Assembly (NCBI GenBank): GCA_900546355.1
Contig: URCM01000014.1
Location: 1 to 42,770 of the forward strand
DNA length: 42,770 bases
Source of the DNA: an uncultured Bacteroides sp.
GTDB taxonomy: Bacteria; Bacteroidota; Bacteroidia; Bacteroidales; Bacteroidaceae
Reading direction: 5' to 3'
The notes under the pieces were generated by a model. It saw only the letters and a list, made by a program, of their open reading frames with translations. It was not told the DNA's origin and searched no databases. The position numbers and the translations under genes are program-made. Below, one piece after another: positions 3,776 through 41,308 of the stretch (its first letter is position 1; each line of letters opens with the position of its first letter).

Positions 3776-6733
3776 ATGCTCAATAAGTTAAAATTAAATC
3801 AACTCTATTTTAAAGACACCCAATTCGTCAACCTGATGACGAAGCGCATATTCAATGTGTTGTTGGTGGCAAATCCGTATGATGCTTTCATGTTGGAAGA
3901 CGATGGACGCATTGACGAGAAGATATTTATCGAGTATATGAACCTTAGCCTTCGCTATCCGCCCCGCTTCACGCAGGTTTCCACCGAAGAAGATGCCTGG
4001 AAGCAGTTAGAGAATACTCGCTTCGAACTGGTTATTTGTATGCCGGGTACGGATAACAGCGATACGTTCGATATCGCAAGGCAGATAAAAGAAAAGTATC
4101 CCCATATCCCTTTGGTGGTGCTGACGCCTTTCTCGCACGGCATACGGGAACGGATGGAACACGAAGACCTGAGTATTTTCGAGTATGTGTTCTGCTGGCT
4201 GGGGAACACCGACTTGTTAGTGTCTATCATTAAATTGATAGAAGACAAGATGAATTTGGAGCACGACATTAAAGAAGTGGGAGTGCAGATGATTCTTTTG
4301 GTGGAAGATTCAGTCCGCTTTTATTCTTCTGTCTTGCCTAATCTATATAAGTTTGTGTTGCGCCAAAGCCAGGAGTTCGCTACCGAGGCGTTAAATGAGC
4401 ACCAGCGAACGTTGCGTATGCGTGGGCGTCCTAAAATTGTGTTGGCACGCAGTTATGAGGAGGCCATCGATTTATATAATAGGTATAAGAACCATATTTT
4501 AGGAATTGTATCCGACGCGCGTTTCCCGAGTGGAAGAAAAATCGATCCGCAGGCTGGGGTTCGTTTTCTTACCGAGGTGCGTAGCCAAAGTCCTTTCATA
4601 CCTTTGATATTACAGTCTGCCGAAATCGCGAACCGGGAGTTTGCCGACCATATCCATGCCCAGTTCATCGACAAAAACTCGAAGAAGATGAGCCTTGAAT
4701 TGCGCCAGGCGGTTTCCGAGCATTTCGGCTTTGGCGATTTTGTGTTTCGCAATCCGAAAACGAAAGAAGAGGTAGCTCGTGTGCATAACCTGAAAGACCT
4801 GCAGAATGCTATATTCACGATTCCTGCCGATTCGCTTCTGTATCACATTAGCCGGAACCACATGTCCCGTTGGTTATATTCGCGTGCTATCTTTCCCGTA
4901 GCCGAGTTCTTAAAGCAAATTACGTGGGAGTCGTTGCAAGACCTTGACGCACACCGTCAGATTATTTTCGAAGCTATCGTAAAATACCGCAAGATGAAGA
5001 ATCAAGGCGTGGTGGCTGTTTTTCAGCGCGACCGCTTCGACCGTTATTCGCATTTTGCACGTATCGGCGACGGGTCGTTGGGAGGTAAAGGAAGAGGCCT
5101 GGCTTTTATCGACAATATGATTAAGCGTCATCCCGAGTTTGAGGAATTCGAGAATGCGGTCATTGAGATTCCGAAGACGGTGGTGCTTTGTACGGATGTT
5201 TTCGATGAGTTTATGGAGACCAATCAGTTGTATCAGGTAGCGTTGAGTGATGCCGATGACGAGGCAATCTTACGTGCTTTCCTGCGCGCCAAACTGCCCG
5301 ACCGTTTGGTGGAAGACTTTTTCGCTTTCTTCGATGTGGTGAAGGCACCTATTGCCATCCGTTCGTCCAGCTTGTTGGAAGACTCACATTACCAGCCTTT
5401 TGCGGGAATCTATTCTACGTATATGATTCCTTATATGGATGATAAGTACGAACGTCTTCGGATGTTGAGCGACGCGATAAAAGGCGTTTATGCTTCGGTG
5501 TTCTACAAAGACAGCAAGGCATATATGCAAGCTACCAGCAATGTGATAGACGAGGAAAAGATGGCGGTTATCTTGCAGGAGGTAGTCGGCACGCAATATG
5601 GCGACCGCTATTATCCTACCATATCCGGAGTGGCGCGCTCTGTCAACTATTATCCGATAAACGATGAGCTTGCTGAGGAAGGAACGGTCAGCCTGGCATT
5701 GGGGCTGGGTAAGTATATCGTAGATGGCGGACTGACCTTGCGTGTTTGTCCCTACCATCCCGACAAAGTGCTTCAAACCAGTGAAATGGAAATGGCATTG
5801 CGCGAAACCCAAACCCGTTTCTATGCGCTCGACTTGAAGAACCTGGGGCACGATTTCTCGCTGGATGATGGATTCAACCTGTTAAAGCTATCGGTAAAGG
5901 ATGCCGAAGCAGACGGCTCGTTGAATTACATAGCATCCACATACGACCCTTACGATATGGTTATCCGTGACGGTATCTATCCAGGCGGGCGGAAAGTCAT
6001 CACCTTTGCCAACATCCTCCAGCATGATGTGTTTCCTTTGCCGCGCATCCTTCAACTGGTGCAGAAATACGGGCAAGGAGAAATGCGCCGTCCGGTAGAA
6101 ATCGAGTTTGCGGTCAACCTGAACGCAAAAGAAAAGAGCGGCATATTCTATCTCTTGCAAATCCGTCCGATGGTGGATATGAAAGCCGATTTGGAAGAAG
6201 ACCTTGAGGCGATTCCCGAAGAACGTTTGCTGCTTAAAAGTGAAAACTCGTTGGGACAGGGTGTCATGGATGGCATTCAGGACGTGATTTACGTGAAGAC
6301 CGAAGGCTATACCGCTTCGAACAACCAGTTGATAGCCTACGATATTGAGAAGTTGAACAAGCGTTTCCTTGACGAAGGGAAGCATTACGTTTTGGTAGGT
6401 CCGGGCAGATGGGGAAGTAGCGATACATGGTTGGGTGTTCCGGTAAAATGGCCCAATATTTCGGCTGCCCGTGTCATTGTTGAGGCTGGGCTGACCAATT
6501 ATCGGGTAGACCCTAGTCAGGGTACGCACTTTTTCCAGAACCTGACATCATTCGGTGTAGGCTATTTCACCATCAATACGTATTGCGATGACGGTATTTT
6601 CAACGAAGCTTTGCTCAACGGTATGCCTGCTGTGGAAGAAACGAAGTTTATCCGTTGGGTGCATTTCGACCGCCCGCTTACGGTTAAGATGAACGGAAAG
6701 AAAAAAGTAGGTGTAGTAGAATTGCCCGAGTGA
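3776..6733 (+). CDS. Tandem receiver domains fused to a PEP-synthase-type ATP-grasp (PPDK_N) domain
   Basis: The protein has 985 residues. Residues about 22-160 form a receiver-like fold in which the phospho-acceptor position is lost (VICMPG). Residues about 170-320 form a second receiver that keeps the full set: Glu177/Asp178, phospho-acceptor Asp247 (IVSDARF), Ser281 and Lys300. Residues about 425-815 match the ATP-binding domain of PEP synthase and pyruvate phosphate dikinase: GGKGRG with Lys438, IRSSSLLEDS with Arg529, SGVARS, and a closing LLQIRPM. The phospho-histidine swivel domain and PEP/pyruvate barrel of true PEP synthases are absent. A different C-terminal domain (about 835-985) contains VGPGRWGSSDTW and SQGTHFFQNL. 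Such proteins are often annotated as PEP synthase, but this architecture cannot run the full reaction. An ATP-dependent phosphotransfer role controlled by phosphorylation is inferred. No histidine kinase gene is nearby. Confidence 0.88.
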   Translation: MLNKLKLNQLYFKDTQFVNLMTKRIFNVLLVANPYDAFMLEDDGRIDEKIFIEYMNLSLRYPPRFTQVSTEEDAWKQLENTRFELVICMPGTDNSDTFDIARQIKEKYPHIPLVVLTPFSHGIRERMEHEDLSIFEYVFCWLGNTDLLVSIIKLIEDKMNLEHDIKEVGVQMILLVEDSVRFYSSVLPNLYKFVLRQSQEFATEALNEHQRTLRMRGRPKIVLARSYEEAIDLYNRYKNHILGIVSDARFPSGRKIDPQAGVRFLTEVRSQSPFIPLILQSAEIANREFADHIHAQFIDKNSKKMSLELRQAVSEHFGFGDFVFRNPKTKEEVARVHNLKDLQNAIFTIPADSLLYHISRNHMSRWLYSRAIFPVAEFLKQITWESLQDLDAHRQIIFEAIVKYRKMKNQGVVAVFQRDRFDRYSHFARIGDGSLGGKGRGLAFIDNMIKRHPEFEEFENAVIEIPKTVVLCTDVFDEFMETNQLYQVALSDADDEAILRAFLRAKLPDRLVEDFFAFFDVVKAPIAIRSSSLLEDSHYQPFAGIYSTYMIPYMDDKYERLRMLSDAIKGVYASVFYKDSKAYMQATSNVIDEEKMAVILQEVVGTQYGDRYYPTISGVARSVNYYPINDELAEEGTVSLALGLGKYIVDGGLTLRVCPYHPDKVLQTSEMEMALRETQTRFYALDLKNLGHDFSLDDGFNLLKLSVKDAEADGSLNYIASTYDPYDMVIRDGIYPGGRKVITFANILQHDVFPLPRILQLVQKYGQGEMRRPVEIEFAVNLNAKEKSGIFYLLQIRPMVDMKADLEEDLEAIPEERLLLKSENSLGQGVMDGIQDVIYVKTEGYTASNNQLIAYDIEKLNKRFLDEGKHYVLVGPGRWGSSDTWLGVPVKWPNISAARVIVEAGLTNYRVDPSQGTHFFQNLTSFGVGYFTINTYCDDGIFNEALLNGMPAVEETKFIRWVHFDRPLTVKMNGKKKVGVVELPE

Positions 6734-6824: not shown

Positions 6825-6921
6825 TATAATTGCTTGACCGACACGATTAGTAATCGTACAGTGTGACGATTACTAATCGTACAGCCTGACGATTACTAAT
6901 CGTGTCGGCAATGCAGTTATG
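6825..6921. repeat. 97-bp triple-palindrome element, copy 1
   Basis: Three 15-bp palindromes lie at 6843-6857 (ACGATTAGTAATCGT), 6866-6880 and 6889-6903 (both ACGATTACTAATCGT), separated by 8-bp spacers ACAGTGTG and ACAGCCTG, so the period is exactly 23 bp. They are enclosed by an outer inverted repeat (ATAATTGC at 6826-6833, GCAGTTAT at 6913-6920) whose centre is the middle palindrome (6873). Inner arms carry CCGAC / GTCGG. The same layout recurs at 20967 and 39485. Confidence 0.93.
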
Positions 6922-7034: not shown

Positions 7035-7107
7035 TCGGAATGAGGCGACTCGAACGCCCGACCCCTACGTCCCGAACGTAGTGCGCTACCAACTGCGCTA
7101 CATTCCG
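7035..7107 (-). tRNA. tRNA-Pro (anticodon CGG)
   Basis: The 73-nt minus-strand sequence folds as a full cloverleaf: acceptor CGGAATG / CATTCCG with discriminator A; D-arm GCGC-AGTTGGTA-GCGC; anticodon stem CTACG / CGTAG around loop TTCGGGA, which places CGG at positions 34-36; five-base variable loop; and T-arm with TTCGAGT. The terminal CCA is not encoded (CAG follows), so it must be added after transcription. It has its own promoter (7139-7169) and terminator (6994-7033). Confidence 0.95.
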
Positions 7108-7417: not shown

Positions 7418-8839
7418 TTACAAAGAAGCTACTTCGCTCAATGTATTGAATACGCTGCTGCAAATACCTAACAGAACGATGCCCAACAGGCAGATGACCA
7501 GACAAGCGCGTGTCATGGCCGAACTGCGGAATGTAGGCAGCGGTTTGTCGTTCGGCGTAATGTACATGGCTTTCACGATAAGCAGGTAGTAGAACAGTGA
7601 GATGATGGTGTTCACCAATGCCAGGAATACTACCAGCCAGTGTCCGGCATGGAATGCCGAAGCGAATACGAAGAACTTCGAGAAGAAACCGGCAAACGGC
7701 GGGATACCTCCCAATGAGAAAAGTGCCAGTGTCATGATGAAGCTCAGGTGCGGGTTGGTCTGGTAGAAACCGTTGTATGCTTCTCGGTCTACACGGCCGC
7801 CGTTGTGTTGTTCTACGGTAGTGATGACACCGAATACAGCCAAGTTGGCAACGATGTAAACGATGACGTAGTAAACCAACGATGCCATGCCTTGTCCGTC
7901 AGCTCCCAATACAGCCAGCATGATGTAGCCTGCCTGCGAGATACTACTGTAAGCCATGAACCGTTTCAGGTCGTGCTGCAGGATAGCAAAGATATTGGCG
8001 ATGGTGATGGTCACTACGATGACTACCGACAGCAAGAAGCTCCAATTGTCAATCATCGGACCGAACACTTTCACCAAGATACTCATCAACGCAAAAGCAG
8101 CTGCACCTTTTGAGATGACAGACAAGTAAGCTGTGATGCTGGTAGGAGCACCTTGATACGTGTCGGGAGTCCACATGTGGAACGGTACCAGGCTCAACTT
8201 GAATCCTAAGCCAGCGAAGAAGAATACCATAGCCATGATTTGAAGCGGCGTGCCGGTCAGTAAGGCGGGCAGGTCGTCGAAATACATGGTTCCGCATGTG
8301 CCATAAACCAATGACAAGCCGTAAAGCATCAAGGCAGAAGAAAACATGGCGTTCAGGATGAACTTTGTTCCAGCTTCCGCGCTTTGGCGACGGTATTTAT
8401 CGAAAGCTATCAGGCAAGCCAAGGGGATGCTGGCAAGTTCCAGGCCTACGTAGAAGAGGAGGAAGCTGCCGGCACTTACCATATAATACATACCCAGCAG
8501 GGTAGAGAGCGTCAGTACGTAGAATTCGCCTGCCTTGTGGCGTGTGTCTTCACGGTTAATCCATGAATCGGCCTGCATGAAGACGAGTAGCGTACCTGCT
8601 GCCAATACGGTCTTGACGATGGAAGCCATCGGAGTGGTGCGATACATACCTCCGAAAGCCTCGCCCGTCACGGGGATGATGTTCAATGCGATTTGTACCA
8701 CTAAAAGCCCGCAAGCCAAACCTTGCAACGCCTTGTGGTTAGGCTGTTTCAATATCAGGTCGGCAAGCAATACGATAATCAGTATGACTGCCAAGCTGAT
8801 TTCTGCCTGCATGGCAGAGAATATTGCACTTATATCCAT
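7418..8839 (-). CDS. nuoN: NADH-quinone oxidoreductase subunit N
   Basis: The 473-residue polytopic membrane protein is the last gene of the nuo operon and one of the three antiporter-like proton-pumping subunits of complex I. Hydrophobic helices fill the whole length. The conserved core reads [31 protein letters not shown] with the pump-channel lysine, and [24 protein letters not shown] follows, both hallmarks of the proton_antipo_M family. The family length is typical. It starts 12 bp after nuoM, which implies co-translation. Confidence 0.96.
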
Positions 8840-20931: not shown

Positions 20932-20962
20932 GTTGGGGATTGGGATATTTTACGTAACTTTG
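20932..20962 (+). promoter_or_regulatory. Predicted promoter of the GSCFA-murF-alr operon
   Basis: GTTG (20932-20935), a 19-bp spacer and TAACTTTG (20955-20962) match the Bacteroidetes promoter. The start site would be near 20969, at the left edge of repeat copy 2, so the whole element would be transcribed as part of a leader of about 210 nt. Confidence 0.6.
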
Positions 20963-20966
20963 CCAG

Positions 20967-21063
20967 TATAACTGCGAGTCCTGCACGATTACTAATCGTA
21001 CGGCATAACGATTACTAATCGTACAGCGTGACGATTACTAATCGTGTTAGCTATGCAGTGATA
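20967..21063. repeat. 97-bp triple-palindrome element, copy 2
   Basis: Palindromes ACGATTACTAATCGT at 20985-20999, 21008-21022 and 21031-21045 are separated by 8-bp spacers ACGGCATA and ACAGCGTG. Outer arms TATAACTGC (20967-20975) and GCAGTGATA (21055-21063) differ from a perfect inverted repeat by one base. The symmetry centre is 21015, the middle of the central palindrome. The left inner arm carries CCTGC, the variant also seen on the right side of copy 3. Confidence 0.93.
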
Positions 21064-39302: not shown

Positions 39303-39349
39303 TGCACAAGTTATCAACAGTTATGAACAGCCTGTTGATAACTTGTGCA
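39303..39349. repeat. Perfect 18-bp inverted repeat with DnaA-box-like sites
   Basis: TGCACAAGTTATCAACAG (39303-39320) is exactly complementary to 39332-39349, with an 11-bp loop. It contains TTATCAACA (39311-39319), the same site inverted (39333-39341), and TTATGAACA (39321-39329) in the loop. The DnaA consensus is TTATCCACA, so these differ by one, one and two bases. No T-run flanks it, so it is not a standard terminator. Confidence 0.7.
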
Positions 39350-39484: not shown

Positions 39485-39581
39485 TATAACTGCATTTCCG
39501 ACACGATTAGTAATCGTACAGCGTGACGATTACTAATCGTACGACATGACGATTACTAATCGTGCAGGTATCGCAGTTATA
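39485..39581. repeat. 97-bp triple-palindrome element, copy 3
   Basis: Palindromes at 39503-39517 (ACGATTAGTAATCGT), 39526-39540 and 39549-39563 (ACGATTACTAATCGT) are separated by ACAGCGTG and ACGACATG. Outer arms TATAACTGC (39485-39493) and GCAGTTATA (39573-39581) are a perfect inverted repeat centred on 39533. Inner arms are of two types: CCGAC on the left, as in copy 1, and CCTGC (inverted) on the right, as in copy 2. The stop codon of the TPR-HTH gene lies at the centre of the middle palindrome. Confidence 0.94.
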
Positions 39582-41308
39582 CTAAAATGAAAAAGCAGTC
39601 TTTTGTGCCTTTGTGTTTGCGATGATTGGTTTCTAAATCTGTGTGGTAAGATAGTCTTTTCTGGAAGTTCGATGTGTAGCCGTGTGCGCAGGCGTGCGGT
39701 CTTGGTCCGTACCGAAGTCGTGTTGATGCCAAGCAGCGTGGCTTCGTCGTTTGTGTCGAAGCCGAACAGGTAGAGGCAGCAGTATGCCCATTCCGATTCG
39801 CTGAGGTCGGGACAGCGGTTGATTACGTAGCGTCGCAAGCCGGGGTATACCTCTTGTGCTTGCCGCTTGATTTGTTCCCATAGCTGAGGTGTGAGCAGCG
39901 ACTTGTTGTTGCCGGGCTTCTTTTGTCGGGCCAGTTGTTGCAGTTTCTTATAGATTGCCGATGACTGTAGCATGTTTTGCCTCAGTGTGTGATAGTGTGC
40001 GGTCAGTTCTTTTTTCTCTTGTTGCAGCCGTTGTAACGCTTGCTGTTCGGCTTCCGAGCGTTCCAGCAAGGCGTTTTTCCGTTCTATCTCGATGGAAAGT
40101 TCCAGCATTTGGTTGCGTGTCTCGCGGATGTCCGCTTGTTGCAGCAAGAGCCTTTTTTCCGTCCGCTTGCGGTAGTTCCAATATATTCCGAGCAAGATGA
40201 GTACTCCGATTAAGCAAATGGCAATGATTAGCAGATAGTTTCTTTGCTGGAGCTTTAGTTCGGCATTCTCGGTCATTAGCTTCTGGTGCTTGTAGCGGTT
40301 TTCTATTTCGAATATTTTCGATTCATTAGAGGCGGCGGTTAAGGAGTCGTTGATGTCTGTATATTGTTCCAAGTAATAAAAGGCTTGTTCAAATTTTCCT
40401 TCCAGCTTGGCTATTTCGTATAAATCCGAATATACGGCGTAACGGTGGATGTTTTTGTCCATCGGTATTTTTTTTAGTATGTCTTTCGCTTTTTGAAATT
40501 GGTTGGTTTCTATATACAGGCTGGCTAAAGCAAAGTAGTTGGAAATGGAATTTTTATTCAATGCTAATGCTTGGTAAAAGTAGTTTTCGGCTAATTTGTA
40601 TTCACCTTTGCGTCTGTACAGATTGCCGTATGCATTGAGGATAGATTCATACACATTGGTATCATTGAGTGTTTTTCCGATAGAATCGGCTTTTTGCAAA
40701 TAGTAGAAAGCTTGTGATAATGAATCTATAGCAGTATAGTTCATGCAGATATCTCTTAATGCACACGTATAGCTTCTTGGATTGTTTGCTTTTTTAAACC
40801 AAAAAGCGGCTTCCTTTTTTTTATCAACTGATTTGGAAGTATATTCATAATCAAAATAGAGGTCTGCCATATATGAACACGTATATCCCATCAGTTGATA
40901 GTTTTGACTTCTTTCTGCTGCATGGTATACGTGGGAATACGTATCCATGGCTTTGTCTGTTTCTCCTTCATGGGCGTATGCCATACCTAAATAAAATTCG
41001 GATTTCAGTTGTTCTTTTGATTTGCAGTGTTTTTGAAACCAATCGTATGCTGTTTTCATTTCTTCTATTGAAGGTACTGAGACATTTGAGGCACGGTGTG
41101 AGAGTTCAGCTTTCAGCATACACCAATGCGCAAAGTTTCCGGCATTCAGTGTGTCTGTGTTTATGGTAGCTAATAATGAATAGGCACTATCGGGGTTCGA
41201 TTGCATAAGGTTTTTTACCTTATTAAAAATGAAAGGTTGTGTAGAGTGGTTGCATCCGCATAAAATAACGCTAACCAGTAAAGTTAAAAATGAAATTTGT
41301 TTTTTCAT
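39533..41308 (-). CDS. Lipoprotein-type TPR sensor with membrane helix, coiled coil and C-terminal HTH
   Basis: The 591-residue protein starts with a lipoprotein-like signal (LLVSVILCGC, Cys19). Residues about 25-340 are TPR-like helical repeats (YRRKGEYKLAENYFYQALALNK, IETNQFQKAKDILKKI). A membrane helix lies at about 355-376, then a coiled coil rich in Glu, Gln and Leu (about 385-445). The cytoplasmic C-terminal part (about 475-545) has a LuxR-like HTH (CCLYLFGFDTNDEATLLGINTTSVRTKTARLRTRL). This layout is common in Bacteroidales and suggests a one-component membrane regulator. The last 15 or so residues are encoded by repeat copy 3, so the original C-terminus may have been different. It is divergent from three small-protein genes. 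Confidence 0.85.
   Translation of the reverse strand: MKKQISFLTLLVSVILCGCNHSTQPFIFNKVKNLMQSNPDSAYSLLATINTDTLNAGNFAHWCMLKAELSHRASNVSVPSIEEMKTAYDWFQKHCKSKEQLKSEFYLGMAYAHEGETDKAMDTYSHVYHAAERSQNYQLMGYTCSYMADLYFDYEYTSKSVDKKKEAAFWFKKANNPRSYTCALRDICMNYTAIDSLSQAFYYLQKADSIGKTLNDTNVYESILNAYGNLYRRKGEYKLAENYFYQALALNKNSISNYFALASLYIETNQFQKAKDILKKIPMDKNIHRYAVYSDLYEIAKLEGKFEQAFYYLEQYTDINDSLTAASNESKIFEIENRYKHQKLMTENAELKLQQRNYLLIIAICLIGVLILLGIYWNYRKRTEKRLLLQQADIRETRNQMLELSIEIERKNALLERSEAEQQALQRLQQEKKELTAHYHTLRQNMLQSSAIYKKLQQLARQKKPGNNKSLLTPQLWEQIKRQAQEVYPGLRRYVINRCPDLSESEWAYCCLYLFGFDTNDEATLLGINTTSVRTKTARLRTRLHIELPEKTILPHRFRNQSSQTQRHKRLLFHFSITAIPARLVIVMSYD

What the first reader, a model, noticed from the sequence alone, without database searches (positions are those of the whole stretch)
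6825..6921. Family of 97-bp intergenic elements with three phased palindromes
Three elements (6825-6921, 20967-21063, 39485-39581) share an identical plan: three 15-bp palindromes at exactly 23-bp steps, 8-bp spacers in the same orientation (AC....TG), and an outer inverted repeat (TATAACTGC / GCAGTTATA) centred on the middle palindrome. The overall length is 97 bp in all three. Inner arms come in two types (CCGAC, CCTGC) that are mixed between left and right sides. Conservation of length, phase and symmetry in unrelated intergenic contexts points to a mobile or selected element, such as a REP/BIME-like or MITE-like family or a triple protein-binding site. A 23-bp step is about two helical turns, placing the palindromes on nearly the same DNA face. 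I do not recognise this family.
Basis: partly seen in the sequence, partly recalled or inferred. Interest (0 to 1): 0.82.

Follow-up and report, generated by a model that had tools for sequence, protein, structure and literature searches.

The report
HU-linked arrays of phased DNA palindromes
Three short repeat arrays in a gut bacterium belong to a larger family whose sequence, in related bacteria, also sits directly in front of the gene for an HU-type DNA-binding protein, which suggests that this protein has its own private set of binding arrays scattered over the chromosome.

Summary
In detail: three 97-bp elements, each with three 15-bp palindromes (ACGATTASTAATCGT) at 23-bp steps between outward TATAACTGC arms. 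They belong to a patchy Bacteroidaceae family of arrays with 1 to at least 5 units and two main palindrome types (ACGATTASTAATCGT, and AAGATTWTAATCTT-like with A or T at the centre).

The new finding is the likely partner. The same kind of array lies upstream of an HU-HIG (PF18291) DNA-binding protein gene of about 150 codons. Close homologues (at least 60% identical) occur in 6 of 399 sampled family genomes, all 6 among the 13 genomes with arrays. The palindrome at the promoter matches the main scattered type. A 48% homologue carries a different palindrome, and a search then found scattered arrays of it in that genome and not in three others.

In one near-closed genome several scattered copies are internally deleted copies of the HU-HIG gene region (MITE-like). 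An 833-bp array-plus-gene unit is 95% identical in two species (background 77-84%) with different flanks.

Best reading: scattered, spreading binding arrays of an autoregulated HU-HIG protein. Binding, the mobilising enzyme, and presence of the gene in the window's genome are inferred. REP/RAYT is not supported.

The parts
6825..6921 (.). Element 1, 97 bp (arm, three 15-bp palindromes, arm), between a gene on + ending at 6733 and a tRNA gene on - (7035-7107)
   Evidence: also present in G001 at 98% identity with flanks
6843..6857 (.). Element 1 palindrome 1
   Evidence: exact match
6866..6880 (.). Element 1 palindrome 2
   Evidence: exact match
6889..6903 (.). Element 1 palindrome 3
   Evidence: exact match
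20967..21063 (.). Element 2, 97 bp, between divergent dxs-like and GSCFA-like genes, 4 bp behind a TAnnTTTG box (20955-20962)
   Evidence: absent from the orthologous site in G001, G004, G005, G031; gene names by my own reading
20985..20999 (.). Element 2 palindrome 1
   Evidence: exact match
21008..21022 (.). Element 2 palindrome 2
   Evidence: exact match
21031..21045 (.). Element 2 palindrome 3
   Evidence: exact match
39485..39581 (.). Element 3, 97 bp, between convergent LrgB-like and TPR-regulator-like genes; overlaps the last 49 bp of the ORF 39533..41308 (-)
   Evidence: G001 lacks it beside the same left flank, G004 has an AAGATT-type array there
39503..39517 (.). Element 3 palindrome 1
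   Evidence: exact match
39526..39540 (.). Element 3 palindrome 2
   Evidence: exact match
39549..39563 (.). Element 3 palindrome 3
   Evidence: exact match

Best explanation
The 97-bp elements are scattered copies of a binding array for a dedicated HU-family protein (HU-HIG, PF18291), probably encoded elsewhere in the same genome. Proposed working: HU-HIG dimers bind the 15-bp palindromes side by side, one per 23 bp. One array in the leader of the HU-HIG gene makes that gene autoregulated. The scattered arrays are bound by the same protein and bring neighbouring DNA under its influence (bending, or a roadblock where an array lies just behind a promoter, as element 2 may). The arrays spread as small non-coding (MITE-like) copies of the array-plus-gene region. 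Shown here: arrays, geometry, linkage to HU-HIG genes, matching of promoter and scattered palindromes, presence or absence between relatives, deletion derivatives, a predicted HU fold. Inferred: binding, autoregulation, effect on neighbours, the way of spreading, and that the window's own genome carries the gene.
Against: No whole genome is held for the window and no HU-HIG sequence is in it, so the partner gene was never seen in this organism. The sister genome G001 has one close HU-HIG, of the AAGATT kind, and few ACGATT arrays. 7 of the 13 array genomes have no homologue of 60% or more (G066, G095, G116, G007, G232, G356, G405); in G066 an AAGATT array lies about 430 bp before a distant HU-HIG gene, and in G095 about 900 bp before one, but the HU-HIG loci fetched from G116, G232, G356 and G405 have none. 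57 of 72 HU-HIG-like genes have no array by the same test, and PF18291 also rings in ordinary HU bearers such as E. coli, so the family label is broad. HU proteins usually bind with little sequence preference (recalled). Left and right arms match within elements slightly more than between them (0.594 against 0.542) and the elements fold well as single strands, so a hairpin role is not excluded. No mobilising enzyme, exact ends or target duplications were found.
Confidence: 0.62

Rival explanations
1. Passenger model: the arrays are a MITE family moved in trans by an unidentified transposase. It once captured or neighbours the HU-HIG gene; the protein does not specifically bind the palindromes.
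For: Copies look like deletion derivatives with shared ends, the usual relation of MITEs to a longer element; IS copies are common near arrays; BrickBuilt, the nearest described element, shares ends with IS5-family elements.
Against: It does not explain why the palindrome differs between HU-HIG lineages yet matches the scattered type of the same genome, nor why palindromes stay perfect while spacers drift. No transposase with such ends was found.
Confidence: 0.2
2. Conventional regulatory sites: triple operators of another transcription factor whose regulon includes the HU-HIG gene, spread by ordinary evolution.
For: Array position behind promoters of HU-HIG genes; element 2 stands just behind a promoter-like box.
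Against: Of 81 arrays with both neighbours called, 29 are convergent and 13 divergent; only the HU-HIG genes recur at one distance; presence changes between close relatives.
Confidence: 0.09
3. Hairpin elements acting as RNA or single-stranded DNA (mRNA 3'-end protection, termination or replication effects).
For: All three fold far better than shuffles as DNA (z -11.8, -4.4, -8.1), which self-complementary repeats must do; slight arm matching; convergent sites are the commonest class.
Against: The 23-bp phase and near-perfect unit identity are not needed for hairpins; arms are often not complementary (0.594 of positions); no Rfam match.
Confidence: 0.06
4. REP/REPIN elements moved by a RAYT (Y1 transposase).
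For: Many intergenic palindromic copies linked to one gene.
Against: Y1 transposase found in only 2 of 8 array genomes; no GTAG tag; units in direct tandem.
Confidence: 0.03

Closest known systems
BrickBuilt MITE of Porphyromonas gingivalis (Klein et al. 2015, PMC4596501; abstract, sections 5 and 8, part 1 of section 7 and passages seen)
   Same: 23-nt tandem unit in variable number, intergenic, 19 copies in one genome, flanking segments with inverted-repeat ends, unit gain and loss between strains. Table 1 puts BrickBuilt_14 between a gene on the minus strand and PGN_0872, 'DNA-binding protein (PF00216)', on the plus strand, so one copy lies before an HU-family gene (not commented on in what I read).
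   Different: TIR GAGACCTTTGCA is not in the window elements (at least 4 of 12 mismatches); leaders and tails up to 285 and 318 nt; 'palindrom' does not occur in the text. The unit sequence is only in a figure, so homology could not be tested.
HU-HIG family (PF18291) and the solved structure BVU_2165 (4fmr)
   Same: The linked protein passes the Pfam cut-off (67.1 bits against 26.2); its model matches 4fmr and HU/IHF.
   Different: I found no description of cognate palindrome arrays. A 2017 analysis of HU clades expanded in Bacteroidetes by Burroughs and colleagues, proposing recognition of invading DNA, is recalled only; the searches did not show it.
REP / REPIN-RAYT systems (PMC3116915, listing only; PMC3733652, passages seen)
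   Same: Many intergenic palindromes, thought mobile, linked to one gene.
   Different: The linked gene is HU-family, not a Y1 transposase; units stand in direct tandem with fixed 23-bp phase.
BOX elements of Streptococcus pneumoniae (recalled)
   Same: Modular: end modules around a variable number of middle units.
   Different: I recall no palindromic units and no linked DNA-binding gene for BOX.

Membership tests
REP/REPIN-RAYT | Cognate Y1 (RAYT) transposase in the genome | tested here: not met
   PF01797 match in 2 of 8 array genomes (G031, G007), none in G001-G006 (drafts may be incomplete)
REP/REPIN-RAYT | GTAG or CGTC tag at one end of a stem-loop | tested here: not met
   GTAG not seen adjoining the window palindromes; CGTC (as GACG) overlaps some unit ends only and the AAGATT-type unit cannot form it; feature as told in PMC3733652
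BrickBuilt | 23-nt tandem unit in intergenic elements | tested here: met
   201 pairs at 23 bp against 9 at other steps; none of 90 arrays wholly inside a called ORF
BrickBuilt | TIR GAGACCTTTGCA | tested here: not met
   Best fits 4, 4 and 5 mismatches in 12 around the window elements
BrickBuilt | Homology of the 23-nt unit | not testable with these tools
   Unit sequence only in a figure; no P. gingivalis genome reached
MITE (generic) | Short, multi-copy, non-coding, inverted-repeat ends | tested here: met
MITE (generic) | Derives from, or shares ends with, a transposase-bearing element | tested here: inconclusive
   Deletion derivatives of an HU-HIG-bearing unit found; no transposase with these ends seen
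MITE (generic) | Target-site duplication | tested here: inconclusive
   Ends not defined to the base; none seen by eye at L233, L239, L211, L212
HU-HIG-linked palindrome arrays (proposed here) | Same palindrome at 22-23-bp steps before an HU-HIG gene of the same genome | not testable with these tools
   Window genome not held; met in G001, G002, G003, G004, G005, G031, G089, G187
HU-HIG (the linked protein, PF18291) | Pfam gathering score and HU fold | tested here: met

The most novel reading that the evidence does not exclude
HU-HIG genes with their palindrome arrays are a self-contained class of genetic element: a mobile unit whose only gene encodes a sequence-specific HU-family protein, which controls its own promoter and also binds, and perhaps helps to move or to silence, non-coding array-only copies. 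Each HU-HIG lineage evolves its own palindrome, which would account for part of the expansion of HU paralogues in gut Bacteroidales. BrickBuilt of Porphyromonas may be a further case.
Probability: 0.3. Interest if true: 0.9.

Novelty: new variant of a known kind. Interest (0 to 1): 0.78.

Why it matters
HU-family proteins are the textbook example of DNA binders with little sequence preference. A clade of HU paralogues with private, phased palindrome arrays at the promoter and elsewhere in the genome would be a sequence-specific HU system. It would give a testable role to some of the many HU-HIG genes of Bacteroidales and a partner to orphan intergenic repeats. The pairs also offer a natural series of protein and DNA-site changes (ACGATT, AAGATT and TACGAACATG types) from which a recognition code could be read.

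Tried and rejected
RAYT/REPIN: rejected on the missing Y1 transposase. Phage or plasmid origin: element 1 with or without flanks gave no match in the phage or plasmid collection (elements 2 and 3 were not tried). Two viral contigs matched the pattern but at a 24-bp step with other surroundings and were set aside. A known RNA: the only Rfam match in the window is a tRNA. A wider regulon: besides the HU-HIG genes no flanking family recurred at one distance (simple ORF calling; a group of five mixed signalling proteins looked like chance). Special spacing on the chromosome: 31 array positions of G031 do not depart from uniform. A sequence search of the PDB with the HU-HIG protein gave one chance-level match; the fold search was needed. 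Clean empty sites for elements 1 and 3: their two flanks lie apart in relatives.

Dropped or corrected rows. L034 (G006, 5.4-kb contig) and L248 (G001, 4.7-kb contig) are 100% identical to G031 over about 200 bp, probably contamination of metagenome bins; I do not use them as conserved sites, but L034 is still in the counts. In G187 the array at the end of C30 and that at the start of C28 look like one array split by assembly and were counted once. L009/L151, used for the loss of one unit, lie in a stretch 91-99% identical between G004 and G031, above their background, so that stretch was probably exchanged recently. Decay of ACGATT arrays in G004 was looked at but the sample is too small for a claim. 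The third Fisher value printed used a wrong table and is not used.

Full report
OBSERVATION. The window is Bacteroidaceae-like chromosome; no whole genome is held for it. The nearest held genome found, G001 (a metagenome bin), is 96.5% identical over 5.25 kb. The three elements are as described apart from details: nine exact ACGATTASTAATCGT at 23-bp steps, against a mean of 1.03 matches with up to 3 mismatches in 100 shuffles. Arms and spacers are less uniform than stated, and element 3 overlaps the 3' end of an ORF by 49 bp.

FAMILY. A scan of the genome collection for two copies 6-14 bp apart gave 69 stretches, titled Bacteroidaceae, Bacteroides or Phocaeicola, and one Paraprevotella bin. 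In the 0.80 Mb then held, 201 tandem pairs of like 15-bp odd palindromes stood at 23 bp and 9 at all other steps from 16 to 40 (most of these loci had been chosen by the array, but with the gap left free from 6 to 14). Unit number runs from 1 to at least 5. At one place G031 has three units and G004 two, by loss of exactly 23 bp. A second type with AAGATTATTAATCTT and like arms was met in G004 beside the same left flank as element 3. A looser search (GATTANTAATC twice, 23-bp step) found 13 of 399 family genomes with 1 to 97 pairs. In the genus of G001 the strict pattern is in 4 of 61 genomes. So the family is patchy and can be abundant.

SITES. None of 90 arrays was wholly inside a called ORF; of 81 with both neighbours called, 29 are convergent, 13 divergent and 39 in tandem (simple ORF calling). 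Element 2 is missing at the orthologous dxs/GSCFA-like site in G001 (where about 60 other bp stand), G004, G005 and G031. For elements 1 and 3 the two flanks lie apart in the relatives, so no clean empty site can be shown. G001 has element 1, and lacks element 3 beside the same left flank.

THE LINKED GENE. All-against-all comparison of flanking proteins gave one small group with the array 66-69 bp before the start codon in three genomes, G005, G003 and G002. Pfam names it HU-HIG. In G031, G004, G002 and G003 there are 51 matches to this family, 50 over the cut-off; the model also rings in ordinary HU bearers such as E. coli. G031 has two such genes with arrays: one with ACGATTASTAATCGT (about 280 bp upstream, another short repeat lying between) and one with AAGATTATTAATCTT (-128 to -68); G004 has the second kind. 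A protein search of 399 family genomes, made without regard to arrays, ranked G005, G031 (two genes), G001, G004, G089, G002 and G187 on top with a drop after them; all eight genes have an array upstream, that of G187 with a different palindrome. Of 18 lower-ranked genes with enough upstream sequence 1 had a (weak) tandem palindrome.

MATCHING OF TYPES AND A PREDICTION. Where the promoter is of ACGATT type the scattered arrays are too (G005), and likewise AAGATT (G004, G001); G031 has both genes and both types; G089 looks mixed in both places. I then searched the palindrome found before the G187 gene as a test: two scattered arrays plus the promoter array were found in G187, and none in three other genomes. 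In G003 the palindrome AAGGTATATACCTT, before another HU-HIG gene, has one scattered 8-unit array. Upstream tandem palindromes are enriched at HU-HIG-like genes, 15 of 72 against 6 of 241, yet most such genes have none.

SPREADING. Of 17 AAGATT-type loci taken from G031, 8 share sequence with the HU-HIG region beyond arms and array, into the leader or the first codons. Two of them (L233, L236) carry HU codons 1-11 joined to its last codons by BLAST; two more (L239, L237) look alike by eye. These are MITE-like deletion derivatives. An 833-bp unit with leader, array and gene is 95% identical in G031 and G004 with different flanks, while three single-copy regions are 77-84% identical between them. 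The window elements carry only arms and array, and no HU-HIG remnant is in the window, so they look older. No mobilising enzyme was found.

MECHANISM. The protein model has an HU fold. Palindromes are kept almost perfect while spacers drift (0.993 against 0.604 mean identity). In several HU-HIG leaders the array stands shortly behind a TAnnTTTG box (by eye; promoter consensus recalled), and so does element 2. The simplest reading is a row of dimer sites for an autoregulated HU-HIG protein, with scattered copies that the same protein occupies. Binding is not shown. The 23-bp step is about 2.2 helical turns, so neighbouring dimers would not lie on quite the same face; the step may reflect the footprint of one bent-DNA complex (inference).

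KNOWN WORK. The closest described element is BrickBuilt (PMC4596501; abstract, sections 5 and 8, part 1 of section 7 and passages read). It shares the 23-nt unit and the dispersal but not the ends. Its Table 1 places one copy before an HU-family gene, which my reading would predict. For a link between such repeats and HU-HIG I searched the held library and saw none; most subscription papers are not in it.

VERDICT. A real, patchy, spreading family of phased palindrome arrays with a strong and specific link to a clade of HU-HIG genes. I file it as a new variant of a known kind (dispersed palindromic, MITE-like repeats), with a reasonable chance that it is a new class of HU-based element.

Noticed in passing
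L116 1914-1991 (G001 contig C93): Beside the left flank that corresponds to element 3, G001 has another tandem palindrome array (TTCCGCCAGCCGGAA-like, four units at 21-bp steps), unrelated in sequence.
   Followed up: partly
L043 about 203 and L052 about 7926-7960 (G002); L063 about 480 (G003): Further tandem palindromes at 21-22-bp steps (TCCTTAGCCTAAGGA and GGTAATGRGATTACC types), possibly arrays of other HU-HIG lineages.
   Followed up: no
L236 about 140-1436 and L246 (G031): An IS whose transposase looks ISAs1-like (name recalled) sits at the same CGCATATAG arm position in two array copies, flanked by what looks like a duplicated CGCATATAG.
   Followed up: partly
L152, L231, L235, L238 (G031): Another short repeat with ends like GAAGCTGTTTTGAATT lies close to several arrays; in L152 it stands between the array and the HU-HIG gene.
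   Followed up: no
window 39303-39349: A strong inverted repeat (TGCACAAGTTATCAACAG ... CTGTTGATAACTTGTGCA) lies behind the LrgB-like gene; parts of it recur at other places in several relatives.
   Followed up: no
L034 (G006) and L248 (G001): Small contigs 100% identical to G031 over about 200 bp, probably contamination of metagenome bins.
   Followed up: partly
L009 and L151 (G004, G031): A stretch of several kb with an integrase-like gene is 91-99% identical between two genomes that are 77-84% identical elsewhere, so it was probably exchanged recently.
   Followed up: partly
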